64,000 nt of DNA from a virus, in IMG/VR virus record IMGVR_UViG_3300020027_000004, positions 24,003-88,002 of that record; one strand, written 5' to 3'. Below the pieces are notes generated by a model, which saw only the letters and a program-made list of their open reading frames with translations, searched no databases and was not told the origin of the DNA. A program made the translations under genes and the position numbers. Each line of letters opens with the position of its first letter. Positions within the stretch are counted from its first letter, which is position 1. Shown here piece after piece: positions 2,233 to 63,971 of this stretch.

Positions 2233-2415
2233 CGCCTTGTCGGGTGTCGGCGGCAGCCGCTCTCCACGAAGCGTGGCGTCGCGAATATCCTCAAGCGTCC
2301 TCGCGATACGACCCAGGCGAGACACCGTCATGGCCGACCAGATGATCCAGAGGATCCAGCTGGTGAACATGAGGGCGCCAATCACGAGGCCGACGCCGAA
2401 ACCGATTGTCATCAC
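2176..2415 (-). CDS. Small membrane protein, 79 aa
   Basis: The N-terminus is a long hydrophobic stretch (residues ~3-32, IGFGVGLVIGALMFTSWILW) followed by a charged cytoplasmic tail with RTLEDIRDATLRG. One or two membrane passes are likely. The start overlaps the stop of the upstream recombinase (ATGA), so the two are probably co-translated. Function unknown. Confidence 0.6.
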   Translation of the reverse strand: MMTIGFGVGLVIGALMFTSWILWIIWSAMTVSRLGRIARTLEDIRDATLRGERLPPTPDKALLARRARLQAGAKKADES

Positions 2416-3068
2416 GACCGCACCGCCCGTTGAGTGCTTCGTCGCTTGGTGCTGGTGGGTCCCATGGCTTGCTTCACTCCACCCTCCGGGTTGTTCGCGT
2501 CAGCCGCGCGCAGCCGCGCGACGCCGACGGTACAGCGCAGTTCCTTTGCGATCGTTGACCACGACTTGCCTTGACGCCGCAACTCGATGACAGCCGCCGA
2601 TGAGGGACCGTTCACCGGAGGCCGGCCGAGCCGTTTCCCCGACCGACGAGCGCGATCAAGTCCGAGCATGGTGCGCTCCCGAATCAGCGTGCGCTCGAAC
2701 GTTGCAACACCCGCGAGCACGGTGAGGATCAGGCCGCTGATTGCATCGCCGCCAGGCTTCACGTCGATTCCCTGCGAGGTCGCGACGAAGCGCACGCCAG
2801 CGTCCTTGAGCGCCTCGATGTTCGCGAGCACATCGAGAGTTGAGCGTCCCCAGCGATCCATCTTCCACACCGCGACCGCATCAATCTCTCCCTTGCGGGC
2901 AGCTTCGAGCACGCGCTGGAGACCTGGGCGACCGTTCCACGCACCGCTCGCCGACTCCTCGATACACAGCGCCACGACTCCACCGTGACGGTCGACCCAC
3001 GATTCAAGTTCTGCCCGAGCGAGACCCTGATCTTGGTCGAGCGTGGATACGCGGTGGTAGATCGCCAC
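2412..3068 (-). CDS. Small serine recombinase (resolvase/invertase family)
   Basis: Catalyses strand exchange through a 5'-phosphoserine link. From the GTG at 3068 the protein is 218 aa and opens with VAIYHRVSTLDQ, putting the nucleophile Ser at residue 8, as usual in the family. Further family marks are VWKMDRWGRS, a GDAISGLILTVLAGVATFER dimer-helix region, the GKRLGRP linker and a C-terminal helix-turn-helix (WSTIAKELRCTV). An ATG at 3152 is in frame but lies upstream of the predicted transcription start. AAGGGGGG, 8 nt before the GTG, is a strong ribosome-binding site. The short length and Pin-like C-terminus suggest an invertase/resolvase rather than a large integrase. Confidence 0.85.
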   Translation of the reverse strand: MAIYHRVSTLDQDQGLARAELESWVDRHGGVVALCIEESASGAWNGRPGLQRVLEAARKGEIDAVAVWKMDRWGRSTLDVLANIEALKDAGVRFVATSQGIDVKPGGDAISGLILTVLAGVATFERTLIRERTMLGLDRARRSGKRLGRPPVNGPSSAAVIELRRQGKSWSTIAKELRCTVGVARLRAADANNPEGGVKQAMGPTSTKRRSTQRAVRS

Positions 3069-3076
3069 ACGTATCG

Positions 3077-3099
3077 CCCCCCTTGTAGAAAACGGGGGG
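3077..3099 (-). promoter_or_regulatory. Hairpin that masks the recombinase ribosome-binding site
   Basis: On the minus strand a run of six C and a run of six G lie 11 nt apart and can pair. The G-run is the Shine-Dalgarno element of the recombinase GTG start at 3068. Folding would hide it, so translation may be conditional. The homopolymer runs could also slip during replication. Confidence 0.5.
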
Positions 3100-3134
3100 T
3101 CAATGCGGGTGCCCTGTACTGCCCGCTTCCGGCG

Positions 3135-3162
3135 ATTTGCGGCCATGGGCATAGCTTGTCAA
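3135..3162 (-). promoter_or_regulatory. Candidate promoter of recombinase gene
   Basis: The minus strand reads TTGACA (3162-3157, a perfect -35), a 16-nt spacer and GCAAAT (3140-3135, a poor -10). Transcription would start near 3128, giving a leader of about 60 nt that contains the ribosome-site hairpin. This placement supports the GTG start over the upstream ATG. Confidence 0.4.
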
Positions 3163-58088: not shown

Positions 58089-58640
58089 TCATGGAATCGA
58101 CCGAGCCAAGGATCCATCGAGGATCCGAGCGGTTGCAGGGTCTGGCGCCTCGAAGATCGCTTTGGCCGCCCGGCCGTGCTCGCGCGGGCGGTCCTCCACC
58201 CAGCGCCAACCGGACATCAGGTAGCAGTGCCCGGGCAGGTTGCGCTTGGACCGGCGCGCACGCGTCTCCTCGATGGCCACCTCGGTGCGGAGCGGCTCGG
58301 TTGGAAGCCCGCGGTAGCGACGCTCCCACAGCTCGTAGGTGAGTGCCGTAGCCGCGATGATCAGCGTGCTCGAGAGCGTGCCGCTCTCGTTGCGAAAGAG
58401 CGAGTTTCGCCACTGGTAGGTGCCTACCGGGTCTTTGTTGTAGACCACGCCCCACGCGGCCTCGCCGATCGGTCCCACGTGGTGGAACGCAAACCGCTTC
58501 CCTGGCGCGATTGCGCCACGAGCTCCGATGGTCTGGCGCGAGTAGTGACGATCAGCGAGCGCAGCGATGCGCGGGTCTTCGATCGGCACGTGGCTCCAAA
58601 GAAGCGTGGGTGCGAAGCCGCCGAGCGCGAGCTGGCTCAC
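58089..58640 (-). CDS. Mom/GNAT-like phage protein, 183 aa
   Basis: AALADRHYSRQTIGARGAIA, FRNESGTLSSTLIIAATALT and a late basic stretch before GHCYLMSGWRWV match a phage family (ADRHYSR...FRNE...SELI...AGF) that I associate with Mom-like GNAT-fold DNA-modification proteins. It is coupled to queD by an ATGA overlap, which supports a role in base modification; the reaction is not established. Confidence 0.6.
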   Translation of the reverse strand: MSQLALGGFAPTLLWSHVPIEDPRIAALADRHYSRQTIGARGAIAPGKRFAFHHVGPIGEAAWGVVYNKDPVGTYQWRNSLFRNESGTLSSTLIIAATALTYELWERRYRGLPTEPLRTEVAIEETRARRSKRNLPGHCYLMSGWRWVEDRPREHGRAAKAIFEAPDPATARILDGSLARSIP

Positions 58641-59065
58641 CGATCCAATTCCATGAACTCGTCGGAGCGAAGGAAATCAGACCCCGTGTACATCTTCACG
58701 AAGTCATCCCGCGTGATGCCGGCCCATGTCGTCGATGACTCGCATACTTTGATCGCACAGATCATCTTGCCGATGGGTGAGCGCCACAGCTTGCGCATGA
58801 TCCACACCACGAGCACTTCGGTGGTCGGGACCTCGAGCTCGGGGATCTCGTTGAGAAGGTGGTGATCGAGAACCTCGTGGAGCGGAGCCCATGCGTCGGC
58901 GATCTCCTGGTAGTCAACGATGAACCCTCGCTCGTCGCAGTGGCCCTGTAGCTGAATCTCCACCGAATAGGTGTGGCCGTGCATCCCGAAACATTTGTGC
59001 TCGGGCGGCAACTTGTCGAGGCGATGTGCTGCATCGAACGTGAACCGCTTGGCGATCGTGATCAT
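58637..59065 (-). CDS. queD: QueD: 6-carboxytetrahydropterin synthase family, 142 aa
   Basis: Makes 6-carboxy-tetrahydropterin, the second step toward 7-cyano-7-deazaguanine (preQ0). FTFDAAHRL (His 14), HKCFGMHGHTY (catalytic Cys 25, zinc His 29 and His 31) and LDHHLLNE are all present, and the length is normal for a QueD/PTPS domain. Lies directly downstream of the DpdA-like gene with an ATGA overlap, so the product probably feeds DNA modification rather than tRNA. Confidence 0.88.
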   Translation of the reverse strand: MITIAKRFTFDAAHRLDKLPPEHKCFGMHGHTYSVEIQLQGHCDERGFIVDYQEIADAWAPLHEVLDHHLLNEIPELEVPTTEVLVVWIMRKLWRSPIGKMICAIKVCESSTTWAGITRDDFVKMYTGSDFLRSDEFMELDR

Positions 59066-59703
59066 GTCTCATTTTCTCCGTTGTCGATGAGGAAGCTCGT
59101 CTGCGCGAGCGCGCGTTGCAGAACAGGAATCGAATCGGCGAACTGGGTGGCGCTGGTGCCGTCGATGCTCGTCGCGCCAGCGGCCGCACAGATGGCGATG
59201 CGGCGTTGCGTGTTCACACGTCCGACGTGGCAGATCGTTCCGTGTGCTCGAGCGAGCGCCGCCCAGCGCCCCACGCTGCGCTCCTTGAACTCGTCGCCAC
59301 CGCCCACGAAGATGCCGACCCGCGAGCTCAGATGCGGCTCGATGTCATCGGAGGTCATGCCGTCTTGCACCGCTAGCAATGCTCGAGGCGCGTGCGTGAG
59401 ACACCAGGGGAGCCACTTGAGCGAGAGCCGGAACGAGTCCATGCCACCGCACACGATGTCGGGCGCGACCACCCAATCCGCACCGGCGCCGAGCGCAATC
59501 ACCACGCCGATGAACGCGCGAAGATCGAGCAAAGGCCGCCGCACGGGCTTCGCGTTCCACGCGCTCCACGCTCCGTTATCGATGGCGTACGGAAACCCCT
59601 CGTGCCTCCACGCTCCGGTCGCGGACACCAGGAGGCGCCACCCTCGAGCGCGGAGCATGTCGAGGTTGCGACGCGTGCCTGTGCGTGACGCGTAGGCGAT
59701 CAT
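59062..59703 (-). CDS. dpdA: DpdA-like DNA 7-deazaguanine transglycosylase, 213 aa
   Basis: Phage DpdA enzymes are TGT relatives that swap guanine in DNA for a 7-deazaguanine. YAIDNGAWSAW (Asp 42), GADWVVAPDIVCGG (Asp 82), LAVQDGM, GIFVGGGDEF and ATSIDGTS match the short phage DpdA pattern, including the two Asp expected at the active site. Start ATG 59703 overlaps the upstream TGA. Its neighbours are queD and a PP-loop ATPase. Substrate form (preQ0, preQ1 or a derivative) cannot be read from sequence. Confidence 0.8.
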   Translation of the reverse strand: MIAYASRTGTRRNLDMLRARGWRLLVSATGAWRHEGFPYAIDNGAWSAWNAKPVRRPLLDLRAFIGVVIALGAGADWVVAPDIVCGGMDSFRLSLKWLPWCLTHAPRALLAVQDGMTSDDIEPHLSSRVGIFVGGGDEFKERSVGRWAALARAHGTICHVGRVNTQRRIAICAAAGATSIDGTSATQFADSIPVLQRALAQTSFLIDNGENET

Positions 59704-59873
59704 GGGCATGAACGGCCGGGGTCGCAGTCTCGGCAGTATGCGGAGCGATAGCGCTCGTCCGTGGAGTGGTGAACGTCTCCGAGAGGCCATGGCCATCTCG
59801 TGTCCCCGCAGATCAGTTGCCGAAGGAAGCGACAGCATCGGCAGATACCGATGGCTCCAACACGCGCCCGCAT
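59700..59873 (-). CDS. Cys-rich miniprotein between PP-loop and DpdA genes, 57 aa
   Basis: ATG 59873 overlaps the stop of the PP-loop gene, and the TGA overlaps the DpdA ATG, so it is precisely fitted into the operon. Cys residues at CRCC, CGD, CRDC and SCP could bind zinc; DVHHSTDERYRSAYCRDC is the most distinctive part. A partner subunit or zinc carrier for its neighbours is possible. No known family. Confidence 0.55.
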   Translation of the reverse strand: MRARVGAIGICRCCRFLRQLICGDTRWPWPLGDVHHSTDERYRSAYCRDCDPGRSCP

Positions 59874-60835
59874 CAGGCCGCGTTACAGACACAATCATCG
59901 ATGTCGTCGATCGCGATTCCATCGAGTTCGGACTCGTCGAACGCGAACATCGGTTGCTGCGAGATCGTGAACAGGTCTTCGTAGGACGGAGCGTCGTATC
60001 GGAACGAGCCTTGCGCGTCACCTCGTTGCGGCTTTGGCTCGATCACGCGCTTGAGGAATTCGGCGCCGAACGGCAGCGTGGGAGATACCGGATCCTCCAC
60101 ATGCTCCACCACCTTGATCTTGGTGTCTCTTGGCGCACCAGGAGCGAACACGATGTGCTCCATGTCGATCCACCAATCCGGCGATCCGGGGTTGTCTCGC
60201 ATGATGCGCGTACGCTTGGCGCGACCCTTGAGGAAGCACAGGTCGCAGTTGCCTTCCCACTTCCGGAGTCCCAGATCGAACGGCTGCGCAGCCCAGAACG
60301 CATCGACATCGGCCACGCTCACGCCGGCGTCCGAGAGCGGTAGCGAGACGTCCCATCGATCCTTCTCGTTGCTCGCGCGGATTCGCGAGACCCGCCGCGG
60401 CTCGTCCGCGCGAAGCCCAACAACGTTCGTCCAGTGCTCGTATCCGCGGGCGAGCATCCACGCCTTCATCACGCGGATCTTGAGTTCCTGGGTGCAGAAC
60501 CGTGTCACTGGATTGGGAAGGAAGTTACGCTCACGGATGAGCTGGGCGAATGGCGCGCCATCTCGAGCGGCCGTCTTGTGGTTCACCTCGATGAATCCCG
60601 CATCGTTGTCGGCGCGTTCGACCCAGACCACATCAACGCGCCAGCGCGTCTCGATCTCGTGGATGAAGTCGAGCGTTTCCGGTCGCTCCTTGCCGGTGTT
60701 CGCGAACAACACGTGCACGTCATCGGGCAAGCGACCACCGTGCGCCTGGAGTACGTTCCACAGCATGAGCCCTGACGTGCGGCCGCCGGAGAACGAGATC
60801 TTGGCGGGCCCTTTGATGAGATACGGGTTGCTCAT
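59873..60835 (-). CDS. PP-loop ATPase of the PAPS-reductase family, 320 aa
   Basis: KISFSGGRTSGLML (PP-loop, residues ~10-23) is followed by VLFANTGKERPETLDFI, a nucleotide-handling motif. RFCTQELKIRVMKAW and GNCDLCFLKGR supply conserved Cys. Phage PAPS-reductase-like proteins of this form are widespread with unsettled function; the PP-loop fold is shared with QueC. Here it leads the deazaguanine group, so a step in precursor or base activation is plausible but unproven. ATG 60835 is preferred over GTG 60844. Confidence 0.75.
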   Translation of the reverse strand: MSNPYLIKGPAKISFSGGRTSGLMLWNVLQAHGGRLPDDVHVLFANTGKERPETLDFIHEIETRWRVDVVWVERADNDAGFIEVNHKTAARDGAPFAQLIRERNFLPNPVTRFCTQELKIRVMKAWMLARGYEHWTNVVGLRADEPRRVSRIRASNEKDRWDVSLPLSDAGVSVADVDAFWAAQPFDLGLRKWEGNCDLCFLKGRAKRTRIMRDNPGSPDWWIDMEHIVFAPGAPRDTKIKVVEHVEDPVSPTLPFGAEFLKRVIEPKPQRGDAQGSFRYDAPSYEDLFTISQQPMFAFDESELDGIAIDDIDDCVCNAA

Positions 60836-60842
60836 GGCGAAC

Positions 60843-60848
60843 ACCCTA
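60843..60848 (-). promoter_or_regulatory. -10 box TAGGGT for modification operon
   Basis: TAGGGT on the minus strand lies 7 nt before ATG 60835, with no ribosome site between. It would drive the PP-loop, Cys-rich, DpdA, QueD and Mom-like genes as one leaderless-started operon. Confidence 0.5.
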
Positions 60849-60865: not shown

Positions 60866-61255
60866 TTAGCGTCGCTTTCGCCGGCGAGGCGTCTCAGGCG
60901 GCCGACAGAGCGTGTCATCGAACGTCTCGTGTTGTTCGCCATCGATTTCTGGCACCGGGAGGTGGCCACCCATGACCGCGAGACGAACGCCGATGTTGTT
61001 CCCCACGCCGAGCTGGTTATGGAGCCATCCAGCGCACGCGAATTCGGCACCGGGCTTCGAGTAGTGGCATGCCATCACGTGCCGTGCGTCGCATGTGGAT
61101 AGCGACTGGAGCCCGCTGGCGATCGTCTCGCGTAGACCATCGTGGAGCTCGCGATCGTATCGAGGGATGTCTTCGTCCGGAACGCAGTCCACGCGCCACG
61201 GACAGGAGCGGCATTGCTTGACGGTTTCCGGCCGCGTGTATGCGTGATTACCCAC
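60866..61255 (-). CDS. DUF6283-like Cys-rich protein, 129 aa
   Basis: ETVKQCRSCPWRVDC, then MACHYSKPGAEFACAGWL and VGNNIGVRLAVMGG match a phage/actinobacterial family of small Cys proteins (CxxCPWxxD...MxCHxS...CAGWL) known as DUF6283. Possible zinc or Fe-S site. Ends 18 nt before the modification-operon promoter; overlaps the upstream gene by 8 nt. Confidence 0.7.
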   Translation of the reverse strand: MGNHAYTRPETVKQCRSCPWRVDCVPDEDIPRYDRELHDGLRETIASGLQSLSTCDARHVMACHYSKPGAEFACAGWLHNQLGVGNNIGVRLAVMGGHLPVPEIDGEQHETFDDTLCRPPETPRRRKRR

Positions 61256-61781
61256 GATCGCGCTCCCATGCCCATCGCTTCCCGTTGGAGCCCATGTCGA
61301 TCACCATGCTCGGATCCGCGCATCGCTCGACGAGTTCGAGCGATGCGCGTGAGTGCACGAACGCCAAACGAACAAGAGCGGCCTCGGTGTCGTGGAGCAC
61401 GTCATCGAGCATGATCTCCGTGAGACCTCCTCCGCCCACGCGAACGATTCGGCCAATGAATCCGCATCCAGCGCGATCAGCGCCGCTCACGACATCGCCC
61501 ACGGCGTGCTCGTACTGTGGTCGCTCGTGCCGCAGGGACTTCGGATGCGCATTCATCTCCTTGCGGTAGTAGTCATCGAGGAAGCCATCGGCGATCTGAT
61601 CGCATGCCTCGACGACGAAGCTAACGAGCCCGCACTCGATCCCGCGCGCATCGTCGCTGAGGATCAGCGACTCGATCAGCATCTTCGCGAGATGAAACCG
61701 TTCGGCGTATGGTTCGAGTTCGATGCGGATGAGATCGACCGGTCCGCCGATGCGGTACGCGGCATCATAATCGATGGTCAT
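61248..61781 (-). CDS. Hypothetical protein, 177 aa
   Basis: Helical N-terminal half (RFHLAKMLIESLILSDDARG) and a Gly-rich beta part in the middle (GCGFIGRIVRVGGGGLTEIM). Ends GSNGKRWAWERDRG. ATG 61781 overlaps the stop of the HNH frame upstream. Not recognised. Confidence 0.5.
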   Translation of the reverse strand: MTIDYDAAYRIGGPVDLIRIELEPYAERFHLAKMLIESLILSDDARGIECGLVSFVVEACDQIADGFLDDYYRKEMNAHPKSLRHERPQYEHAVGDVVSGADRAGCGFIGRIVRVGGGGLTEIMLDDVLHDTEAALVRLAFVHSRASLELVERCADPSMVIDMGSNGKRWAWERDRG

Positions 61782-62461
61782 GGTTCATCCGGCTCCGGTG
61801 GCGAGAGCATCGTCATCATCGATAGCTGTTCCGTGGAGTCGCTCCCAGAGGAGCGCGAGCGCGAGCGCGGCACACGCGGGGACAACGCCATTCCCGATAA
61901 GGTGGATCTGTTCTGCCCAGTTTCTGGATAGGAAAGCGCGCTCGCATCGATCACTAGCTTCCACGAGCCACCGATGTTTACGTGCGTCAGGCATGGATCG
62001 CCAAACTTCCTCAGCCTCGAATAGTGAGCATCGCAGAGAGCGAGTTTTCTTGAGCGTCGCGAGCAAAACCGACACGGCACTGGCGTCTTGCGCTTCGAAA
62101 TCTCGCCAGCCTCGTGATGCAAGGTGGTGTGACAGCTCGCGCAAAGCGTCGCCAAATTCTCCAGGCGGTTGTCGCTCCAGATTCGATTCTTGTGATGGAT
62201 CGACAGATCCTCCGTAGTCCGACAACTCTCGCATCTCGCCTTCCGAAACTTCCGGGCGCGAAGCTGATACGCGCCCCGAGTCGGGTTCGGGTTCTGCGCC
62301 ATCATCCACACCGCCATGCACTTCCGATTGCAGGTTCTCCGCGAAGCAAAACGCCCGTTGTCCTCCCGTTGCCCTCCAGCGAATTGCTTGCGCACCAGCA
62401 GCGCGTTGCATGCTTGGCAGAACCGGGGTGGATGTTCCTTCAAATGGTACGTCCTCGGCAT
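61778..62461 (-). CDS. HNH endonuclease inserted in the methyltransferase gene, up to 227 aa
   Basis: Residues ~10-55 carry CQACNALLV and CNRKCMAVW Cys pairs; residues ~75-120 form the HNH core CESCRTTEDLSIHHKNRIWS, LENLATLCASCHTTLHHE; a CRFCSRRS...CDAHYSRLRKFGDP knuckle follows. ATG 62461 directly abuts the TAA of the recognition-domain frame. The last ~50 codons overlap the methyltransferase C-terminus in another frame and may not be genuine. Probably a homing gene, free-standing or within an intron. Confidence 0.75.
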   Translation of the reverse strand: MPRTYHLKEHPPRFCQACNALLVRKQFAGGQREDNGRFASRRTCNRKCMAVWMMAQNPNPTRGAYQLRARKFRKARCESCRTTEDLSIHHKNRIWSDNRLENLATLCASCHTTLHHEAGEISKRKTPVPCRFCSRRSRKLALCDAHYSRLRKFGDPCLTHVNIGGSWKLVIDASALSYPETGQNRSTLSGMALSPRVPRSRSRSSGSDSTEQLSMMTMLSPPEPDEP

Positions 62462-63971
62462 TTAGATCTCCGTCCAACCAGTTGGAAGCCCCATCATCCA
62501 GAGAACGAAACGCGCTGAGTGGCGCTCGCCCCCAATCCCAGTAGGTCGCCCCTTCGTCGAGGATTCGCCCGACGAGTGCGATGGTGCGTCGAGACCACGG
62601 ACCACCACATCCGTCAGCGTCGCGCCAGCGTTGCGCCCACTCTCGGCGGTCCAGTTTCCCGCTACGCCTGTTGCTTGGCAATCGCGCGTTGTCGGCGTCG
62701 GTAGTGATGGCCTCGTCGCTAGCCGCGTCACCGCCTCCACGAGATTCGGGCCCTCGCCGTTGTCGCGTTCCTCGCTTCGCGCTCCATGGCGTGCGTTCGA
62801 TGCGGTCGGAGTTGGGAGTGCGCCCACCGACTCGTTCAACGTGCGTCCGCTCCTCGTGTTCGTCCGAGCGCCCGCCTGGCGACCGCTCGACGCTAGCGGC
62901 GTTGGGAGCACCGCACCCGGAAGCGTCGGGTTCCCTCGCGGGTAGTTCGCAGTCCTCCCCGACGCATCGCCCGCCACTGGCGTGGGGAGTGGCGTCGGTA
63001 GAAACCTCTGGCCAGTCGCGGAGTCCGTCGAGCGCAACCGCGCCTCGCGAAAGATCTCGGTCGGTAGCTGCCCGTCGCGACCGCTTCCCTTGTGGTCCCG
63101 AGCTACCGGAGTCGGAAGCGCGCCCGCCCGAGCTCGCGCGAACAAGCTCGGCGTTCCCGCGCTCGGTCGCTCGTTCTCTCCGCCCACCCCGTTGATCCCG
63201 TTCTGGCTCGACCCGTACTGAGACGCGGTTGGCGTCGGTAGCGAGAAGCCAGAATCGATCGCGGATGTGCGGGGCGCCGACAGTGCCCGCGGGGAGACAA
63301 TCCCATTCCGCATGGAACCCGCGCGATGCCAGGTCCCCGAGGATGATCTCGATTGCGGTTCCACCTTGAGCGCTGAGGATGCCCGGGACGTTTTCGATGA
63401 GGAGCCAGCGGGCTTGGGTCGCTTGCGTGATGCGCCAGACTTCGGGCCAGAGCCATCGGACATCGTCGGTACCCTTTCGTTTGCCGGCCACGCTGAAACT
63501 AGGACACGGGATCCCCGCGCACACGATGTCCGTGTTCTCTCGCCACGCCGCTCCGTCGAATGTCGTGAGGTCGCTCCAGATGGGAGCGTGGTCGATATCC
63601 ATCGTCGCCATGCGATGCGCGAGCACGGCCGCCGCGTAGCCCTGGCGCTCGACGTGACAGACCGTGCGCGCGTTCGGTAGCACGGTCTGAATTCCAAGAT
63701 CCAGACCACCGTAGCCAGAGCACAGGCTCACGACTCGCGGCGATCCGGCGCGGCCGATGCTGTCGATGAATCGCCGAACGCGTGACTCCTTGCGCGCGTC
63801 GCTCTCCCACAGGTGAAGCGCCGATGCCCACGGCGCCTTCGCCCAATCGACATCAGAGGACATCTGAGCTGTCGGCTTCCCACCGATGAGCGTCCAGAAC
63901 TCGAACGGCGGGCACAGCACGCTCGACGGCGGCTCGGGCTCGCCCGGTTCCTGTGGAGCGTAGAGCCACAC
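61785..63971 (-). CDS. DNA cytosine-5 methyltransferase, frame-switched and interrupted
   Basis: GTG 63971 opens a 728-aa frame with VVSLCSGYGGLDLG (AdoMet motif I), CAGIPCPSFSVAGK (catalytic Pro-Cys), LLIENVPG (motif VI) and GAPHIRDRFWLL (motif VIII). Its end has IHLIGNGVVPACAALALALL (motif X). Between ~63240 and 62462, however, another frame is the better coding one (repeats of LPTPxA, ending RFVLWMMGLPTGWTE), and from 62461 an HNH gene intervenes. The intact enzyme would need a +1 shift near 63240 and removal of the HNH segment. Confidence 0.7.
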   Translation of the reverse strand: MWLYAPQEPGEPEPPSSVLCPPFEFWTLIGGKPTAQMSSDVDWAKAPWASALHLWESDARKESRVRRFIDSIGRAGSPRVVSLCSGYGGLDLGIQTVLPNARTVCHVERQGYAAAVLAHRMATMDIDHAPIWSDLTTFDGAAWRENTDIVCAGIPCPSFSVAGKRKGTDDVRWLWPEVWRITQATQARWLLIENVPGILSAQGGTAIEIILGDLASRGFHAEWDCLPAGTVGAPHIRDRFWLLATDANRVSVRVEPERDQRGGRRERATERGNAELVRASSGGRASDSGSSGPQGKRSRRAATDRDLSRGAVALDGLRDWPEVSTDATPHASGGRCVGEDCELPAREPDASGCGAPNAASVERSPGGRSDEHEERTHVERVGGRTPNSDRIERTPWSAKRGTRQRRGPESRGGGDAASDEAITTDADNARLPSNRRSGKLDRREWAQRWRDADGCGGPWSRRTIALVGRILDEGATYWDWGRAPLSAFRSLDDGASNWLDGDLNAEDVPFEGTSTPVLPSMQRAAGAQAIRWRATGGQRAFCFAENLQSEVHGGVDDGAEPEPDSGRVSASRPEVSEGEMRELSDYGGSVDPSQESNLERQPPGEFGDALRELSHHLASRGWRDFEAQDASAVSVLLATLKKTRSLRCSLFEAEEVWRSMPDARKHRWLVEASDRCERAFLSRNWAEQIHLIGNGVVPACAALALALLWERLHGTAIDDDDALATGAG
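62462..63250 (-). other. Methyltransferase target-recognition region in the +1 frame
   Basis: This frame reads SLPTPTASQYGSS, ALPTPVARDHKGSG, PTPVAGDASGRTANYPRG, LPTPTASNARHGA and SLPTPTTRDCQATG in succession, then RFVLWMMGLPTGWTEI before a TAA. Repeated LPTP blocks ending in ...WLMGFPxGWT are typical of recognition regions in phage C5-methyltransferases. The motif VIII frame must shift by +1 around CTTCTCGCTACC to enter it. Confidence 0.55.

What the first reader, a model, noticed from the sequence alone, without database searches (positions are those of the whole stretch)
58089..60848. Compact 7-deazaguanine-type DNA modification operon with two unexplained members
Five minus-strand genes, linked by 1-4 nt overlaps and led by one promoter, encode a PP-loop PAPS-reductase-like ATPase, a 57-aa Cys-rich protein, a DpdA-like transglycosylase, QueD and a Mom/GNAT-like protein. 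DpdA plus QueD is established evidence for guanine replacement in phage DNA. FolE, QueE and QueC are absent from the window, so precursor may come from the host or from genes outside. The PP-loop protein, miniprotein and Mom-like protein in this fixed order suggest extra chemistry on the deazaguanine, which I do not know as a described set.
Basis: partly seen in the sequence, partly recalled or inferred. Interest (0 to 1): 0.85.

Follow-up and report, generated by a model that had tools for sequence, protein, structure and literature searches.

The report
Phage DNA-guanine replacement gene cluster
A tailed phage carries an unusually short, so far unannotated enzyme that probably swaps guanines in its DNA for a disguised base, made with help from its own QueD and the host; sister genes in many phages are often paired with an ATP-using (DndC/SspD-like) enzyme, which hints at an extra, untested DNA chemistry.

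Summary
Four of the five genes are real: a PP-loop/PAPS-reductase-domain protein, a 213-aa transglycosylase, QueD and a GNAT-like protein with a Mom-type HYSR motif. The 57-aa "miniprotein" has no coding signal and no relative, and no promoter was found. The record (88 kb) lacks FolE, QueE and QueC. The transglycosylase matches no curated Pfam or NCBIfam family and a PHROG of unknown function. Its predicted fold, however, hits only tRNA-guanine transglycosylases at the top of the PDB. All three TGT aspartate positions and DpdA's diagnostic histidine are conserved, and its profile aligns with phage DpdA. In 83 non-redundant lineages from viral contigs, phage records and bacterial genomes it sits beside QueC (24), QueD (11) and, in one operon, QueE. 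It is best read as an unannotated short DpdA subfamily using host precursor. The "fixed five-gene order" exists nowhere else. The Mom-like gene is not specifically linked. The PP-loop gene is: PAPS-domain genes lie next to this DpdA in about 11 lineages (control 1 of 80 loci), from SspD-, BrxP- and DndC-like subfamilies. A DpdA/PP-loop pair therefore recurs, but its chemistry is unknown and cargo clustering is not excluded. New variant of a known kind; interest 0.5.

The parts
59062..59703 (-). Short (213 aa) DpdA/TGT-superfamily transglycosylase; TGT-like Asp positions D42 (59578-59580), D82, D181; DpdA-like His H159
   Evidence: AlphaFold model pLDDT 83, Foldseek top PDB hits all TGT; 71-member alignment; profile-profile with phage DpdA 2.9e-5; phrog_15826
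58637..59065 (-). QueD, 6-carboxy-tetrahydropterin synthase, with CxxxHGH, DHH and Glu positions kept
   Evidence: TIGR03367 above cut-off; PTPS 1e-28; PDB QueD 1e-26 with aligned active-site residues
59873..60835 (-). PP-loop ATPase with PAPS-reductase domain (SFSGGRTS; FCT and GNCDLCF cysteines), SspD-like
   Evidence: PF01507 over cut-off, phrog_424 2e-49, PADLOC SspD 8e-19
58089..58640 (-). GNAT-like protein with the HYSR motif of Mu Mom (phrog_24928, unknown function); Asp of the family motif (46 of 74 members) is Ala here
   Evidence: AlphaFold model pLDDT 90, weak GNAT hits in BFVD, family alignment
59700..59873 (-). 57-aa ORF claimed as a Cys-rich miniprotein; probably a 169-nt non-coding spacer (59704-59872)
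   Evidence: No coding signal, no homologue
60866..61255 (-). DUF6283 protein, next gene upstream in the same array
   Evidence: PF19800 4e-10
61248..61781 (-). 177-aa ORF of unknown function, same array
   Evidence: ORF and codon signal; no Pfam hit
61785..63971 (-). C5-cytosine DNA methylase (728 aa), same array
   Evidence: PF00145 3e-30, phrog_363 3e-49

Best explanation
This is the DNA-modification (anti-restriction) cargo of a tailed phage. The 213-aa protein is a short DpdA-type guanine transglycosylase. It exchanges guanines in phage DNA for a 7-deazaguanine base, most likely preQ0 or a close derivative. The host makes the base, and the phage's QueD speeds one step of that pathway. The neighbouring PP-loop enzyme probably works on DNA too, perhaps tailoring the inserted base by ATP-driven activation (inferred, about 35%), or making a separate modification. 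The GNAT/Mom-like protein and the C5 methylase are best seen as further, independent DNA modifiers in the same array. Shown computationally: family, conserved catalytic positions, QueD identity, and recurrent que and PP-loop neighbours. Inferred: substrate is DNA, the base inserted, and the roles of the PP-loop and Mom-like proteins.
For: Fold: pLDDT 83, pTM 0.82; the top 28 PDB hits are TGTs, E 3e-5; viral hits include annotated phage queuine transferases and a Vibrio phage nt-1 protein that may be DpdA2. In 71 relatives the TGT Asp positions D82 and D181 are invariant and D42 is present in 70, with Q113, GG134-135 and H159 invariant. H159 lies at the position of 9g DpdA H196, invariant in 14 phage DpdAs. 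Profile-profile with those DpdAs P = 2.9e-5, control 0.17. In 83 non-redundant lineages QueC lies within 2.5 kb in 24 and QueD in 11, against none in 80 PAPS-centred loci. One operon reads QueC-transglycosylase-QueD-QueE (L030). FolE is absent in 51 of 51 long records. 12 of 12 bacterial genomes carrying the gene encode chromosomal QueC. PAPS-domain genes near the family: 12 of 83 lineages against 1 of 80 control loci, p = 0.002.
Against: No zinc-binding Cys/His motif of tRNA TGT. Direct sequence searches give only E 0.077 to a phage queuine-transferase PHROG for the window protein (best member 8e-4) and no TGT in PDB profile searches. About half of the lineages have no que or PP-loop gene nearby. 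No biochemistry on any member. The window's host is unknown, so its ability to make preQ0 is untested. 12 of 12 hosts with QueC is weak evidence because QueC is common (11 of 14 control genomes).
Confidence: 0.68

Rival explanations
1. Cargo clustering: the transglycosylase and QueD modify guanine, while the PP-loop enzyme and the Mom-like protein are unrelated anti-restriction genes that merely share the accessory region.
For: Of 80 window-type PAPS loci only 1 has the transglycosylase and none QueC or QueD. Mom-like: 2 of 83 lineages. DNA methylases are also common neighbours. PAPS genes occur equally with and without que genes (5 of 12 versus 25 of 71, p = 0.75).
Against: PAPS-domain genes of at least three subfamilies sit directly beside this transglycosylase in about 11 lineages, upstream or downstream, against 1 of 80 control loci. 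Within the window's subfamily the association arose at least three times.
Confidence: 0.45
2. The PP-loop protein stands in for QueC and makes preQ0.
For: QueC is also a PP-loop ATPase and is missing from this record.
Against: Real QueC and a PAPS-type gene coexist beside the transglycosylase in L005, L007, L016, L018 and L073, with no avoidance. The protein's best families are PAPS/SspD, not PF06508.
Confidence: 0.07
3. The transglycosylase acts on tRNA or another RNA, and QueD serves general pterin or queuosine metabolism.
For: The fold is that of tRNA TGT and the base pathway is shared with queuosine.
Against: DpdA-type histidine kept and zinc motif absent; profile match to phage DpdA; found in phages and prophage-like regions beside DNA methylases and DNA-modification PP-loop genes.
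Confidence: 0.1
4. A dedicated five-protein pathway including miniprotein and Mom-like protein.
For: Tight gene spacing. L007 carries Mom-like, transglycosylase, QueC and PP-loop genes, but in another order.
Against: Miniprotein not supported. No relative has the same set or order. Mom-like relatives mostly live without deazaguanine genes (75 of 80).
Confidence: 0.07

Closest known systems
Phage DpdA (Enterobacteria phage 9g type) with the preQ0 pathway
   Same: TGT-like fold, DSGAF/DNGAW-type motif, conserved His at 9g position 196, second catalytic Asp, neighbours QueC/QueD/QueE
   Different: About 213 aa instead of about 280-317 aa; not found by direct sequence search; FolE absent in 51 of 51 long records; at most one to three que genes; no Pfam or NCBIfam model
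DpdA2 (Vibrio phage nt-1)
   Same: Probably the same superfamily: a 464-aa nt-1 protein (R9TGF0) is structural hit 19 in BFVD; that it is the published DpdA2 was not verified
   Different: DpdA2 lacks the conserved His196 (PMC6884629), which the short family keeps invariantly
Bacterial dpd island (DpdA, ParB-like DpdB, DpdC)
   Same: DNA guanine transglycosylase in a mobile element
   Different: No dpd restriction genes identified in the array; only a sub-threshold ParB-like match far away in the record
SspD / DndC / BrxP (DNA phosphorothioation PP-loop ATPases)
   Same: The PP-loop proteins beside the short DpdA match these models
   Different: No cysteine desulfurase in the record; other Ssp/Dnd partners not seen in the array but not searched one by one
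Mu Mom (GNAT DNA-adenine modifier)
   Same: HYSR motif, GNAT-like fold
   Different: Not alignable to Mu Mom beyond about 24 residues; separate PHROG (24928 versus 1384)

Membership tests
DpdA / TGT superfamily | TGT-type barrel fold | tested here: met
   Foldseek: the top 28 PDB hits are TGTs, TM-score (query) about 0.6
DpdA / TGT superfamily | Conserved catalytic Asp positions (general acid/base and nucleophile) | tested here: met
   D42 in 70 of 71, D82 and D181 in 71 of 71, aligned by motif order to TGT; residue mapping by motif, not by superposition
Phage DpdA | Conserved His at 9g position 196 | tested here: met
   H159 invariant in 71, matched by motif to H196 invariant in 14 DpdAs
Phage DpdA | Profile similarity to known phage DpdA | tested here: met
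   hhalign P 2.9e-5, probability 74%; direct HMM search against two DpdAs gave no hit
Phage DpdA | Association with preQ0 synthesis genes | tested here: met
   QueC 24 and QueD 11 of 83 lineages; QueC-DpdA-QueD-QueE in L030
Phage DpdA | Inserts 7-deazaguanine into DNA | not testable with these tools
   Needs LC-MS or in vitro exchange
tRNA TGT (canonical) | Zinc-binding Cys3-His motif | tested here: not met
   No conserved Cys cluster in 71 members
QueD | Equivalog model and active-site Cys/His/Asp/Glu | tested here: met
   TIGR03367 over cut-off; alignment to solved QueD
DNA phosphorothioation (SspD/DndC) | PP-loop motif SGGxxS and family profile | tested here: met
   SFSGGRTS; SspD model 8e-19
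DNA phosphorothioation (SspABCD/DndABCDE) | Cysteine desulfurase partner in the same record | tested here: not met
   PF00266 none in 88 kb; a host enzyme could serve
Mom | Detectable homology to Mu Mom | tested here: not met
   hhalign probability 3.6%, 24 columns
Mom | GNAT-type fold | tested here: inconclusive
   Weak BFVD hits to N-acyl/acetyltransferases, mostly E 1e-3 to 1e-2
DpdA3 / DpdA4 (Cui et al. 2023) | Sequence match to the published subfamilies | not tested
   Paper not held

The most novel reading that the evidence does not exclude
The short DpdA and its PP-loop partner (SspD/BrxP/DndC-like) form a two-enzyme system: DpdA inserts a 7-deazaguanine and the PP-loop ATPase then activates and modifies it (for example by sulfur or amide transfer), giving a DNA base not yet described.
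Probability: 0.2. Interest if true: 0.85.

Novelty: new variant of a known kind. Interest (0 to 1): 0.5.

Why it matters
If right, a widespread family labelled 'unknown function' becomes a predictable marker of guanine-modified phage DNA, with 83 lineages found here in viral contigs, phage records and prophage-like regions of Burkholderiaceae, sphingomonads and Pseudomonas. The cultured phage R6L and sequenced host strains make it testable now. The repeated pairing with DndC/SspD-like enzymes would tie two DNA-modification worlds (deazaguanine and phosphorothioate-type PP-loop chemistry) that are usually treated apart.

Tried and rejected
Sequence search of solved structures with the short-DpdA profile gave only noise, so the fold search carried the assignment. 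The Mom-like protein as a single query found no relative in viral contigs; the alignment query found 362. First conclusion that the PP-loop gene is unlinked (PAPS-centred control) was revised after bacterial genomes showed PP-loop genes directly beside the transglycosylase. PP-loop as QueC substitute rejected on coexistence with QueC. Mu Com-like zinc protein as the identity of the 57-aa ORF was considered and not pursued: no coding signal and wrong position. Searches for the key subfamily paper failed; a search for the unexplained PDB entry named PptA also failed.

Full report
What is in the sequence. The window is bases 24003-88002 of an 88,002-base linear virus record. It has terminase, portal, head protease, major head and tape-measure genes, so it is a tailed phage. 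The finding lies in a co-directional minus-strand array near the record's end. Read in transcription order it is C5 methylase (61785-63971), a 177-aa ORF, a DUF6283 protein, a PP-loop protein (ATG 60835 to 59873), a 169-nt stretch holding the 57-aa ORF, a 213-aa protein (59703-59062), QueD (59065-58637) and a GNAT-like protein (58640-58089).

Corrections. The 213-aa gene's longest ORF reaches GTG 60021, but all relatives begin at the residue encoded at 59703, and the extension scores as non-coding. The 57-aa ORF scores -0.28 per codon in its own frame, as non-coding as every other frame of that stretch; the neighbouring genes score +0.09 to +0.44. It has no relative. I treat it as probably not a gene. 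No promoter-like site was found, though the scan covers only sigma70-type sites.

Is the 213-aa protein a DpdA? Family libraries say little: no Pfam or NCBIfam hit above cut-off, PHROG 15826 'unknown function' at 6e-37, and a 0.077 hint to a phage queuine transferase (best of 71 relatives 8e-4). I collected 15 and then 80 viral relatives and 58 bacterial loci. The AlphaFold model (pLDDT 83, pTM 0.82) has tRNA-guanine transglycosylases as its first 28 PDB matches; among viral models it matches phage queuine transferases and a Vibrio phage nt-1 protein. Across 71 members the motifs DNGAW, PD.V, Q.G, GG, H..RVN and DG are conserved, in the order of the TGT motifs. An alignment of 14 phage DpdAs, including phage 9g and Quinobequin-P09, shows invariant D72, H196 and D215. 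The profile-profile comparison aligns the two families over their first 131 columns with P = 2.9e-5, against 0.17 for an unrelated family; H196 lies beyond that stretch and was matched by motif. The paper that defined DpdA2 states that DpdA2 lacks that His (PMC6884629), so the short family resembles the 9g type more than DpdA2. The tRNA-TGT zinc site is absent. I could not read the 2023 paper that added DpdA3 and DpdA4, so the subfamily may have been named there. In the R6L paper the homologue gp10 is 'hypothetical protein'.

Neighbours. Reduced to 83 lineages at 75% identity, QueC lies within 2.5 kb on the same strand in 24 and QueD in 11. In 80 loci centred on window-type PAPS genes there are none. 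In 51 long records FolE is never present, QueC is above cut-off in 13 and QueD in 9. L030 carries QueC-transglycosylase-QueD-QueE with overlaps. These phages thus bring one to three steps, never FolE, and should depend on host pterin supply. All 12 bacterial genomes tested carry chromosomal QueC; this is consistent but weak, since QueC is common.

PP-loop partner. From the PP-loop side the link looks absent: 1 of 80. From the transglycosylase side it is clear: PAPS-domain genes in 12 of 83 lineages versus 1 of 80 Mom-centred control loci (p = 0.002). In about 11 lineages it lies within 1 kb on the same strand, upstream or downstream. The proteins belong to different subfamilies: SspD-like in the window (8e-19), SspD/BrxP-like in Sphingobium (L281), and DndC-like in Caballeronia and Paraburkholderia (8e-42 in L277). 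Pseudomonas chengduensis (L316) has both a BrxP-like and a DndC-like gene flanking the transglycosylase. Within the window's own PP-loop subfamily, the transglycosylase-linked members sit in three separate places of the tree. PAPS genes occur independently of que genes (p = 0.75), so they are not QueC substitutes. No cysteine desulfurase is in the record. Caveats: control loci were not reduced to lineages, and the accessory regions of phages collect anti-restriction genes of all kinds.

Mom-like protein. It belongs to PHROG 24928, not to the Mu Mom PHROG 1384. It shares the HYSR motif and, weakly, a GNAT fold, but hhalign does not join it to Mu Mom. The family's Asp (46 of 74) is Ala in the window, so activity is uncertain. 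Only 2 of 83 lineages have it near the transglycosylase. One further phage, L007, carries Mom-like, transglycosylase, QueC and PP-loop genes together, in a different order.

Verdict. The deazaguanine reading is supported and strengthened, the five-part set is not, and the PP-loop pairing is the part worth following. What is shown is family membership and gene association. DNA as substrate, the base inserted and the partner's chemistry are inferred.

Noticed in passing
L284, L285, L292, L297, L298, L300, L305, L320 (downstream of the transglycosylase): In many Caballeronia/Paraburkholderia loci the DndC-like ORF next to an apparently intact transglycosylase is cut into short pieces (about 60-175 aa), suggesting decay of the PP-loop gene.
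   Followed up: partly
L316:4589-9993: Pseudomonas chengduensis: transglycosylase flanked by two different PAPS-family genes, BrxP-like upstream and DndC-like downstream.
   Followed up: partly
L018:7965-8611; L319:5812-6679; L323:3002-3654: Transglycosylase ORF split in two or three frames: pseudogene or sequencing error.
   Followed up: no
L281:4515-5669: Replication initiator RPA (PF10134) just upstream of a transglycosylase/PP-loop/C5-methylase set in Sphingobium, hinting at a plasmid or phage-plasmid carrier.
   Followed up: no
L002:6001-6642: Erythrobacter phage ZS04 record annotates its short DpdA homologue as 'DarB-like antirestriction protein'.
   Followed up: no
L290:5776-6660 and L316:5812-6663: In the two bacterial loci read gene by gene (Caballeronia, Pseudomonas) the transglycosylase ORF carries an N-terminal extension before the family's usual start, unlike the window protein.
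   Followed up: no
window 2412-3152 (-): Serine recombinase/invertase-like gene (phrog_125, phrog_95) far from the finding; may suggest a temperate phage or an invertible locus.
   Followed up: no
L063:2548-5280 and 13 other lineages: A large helicase-plus-N6/N4-methylase-like protein is the commonest non-que neighbour family of the transglycosylase.
   Followed up: partly
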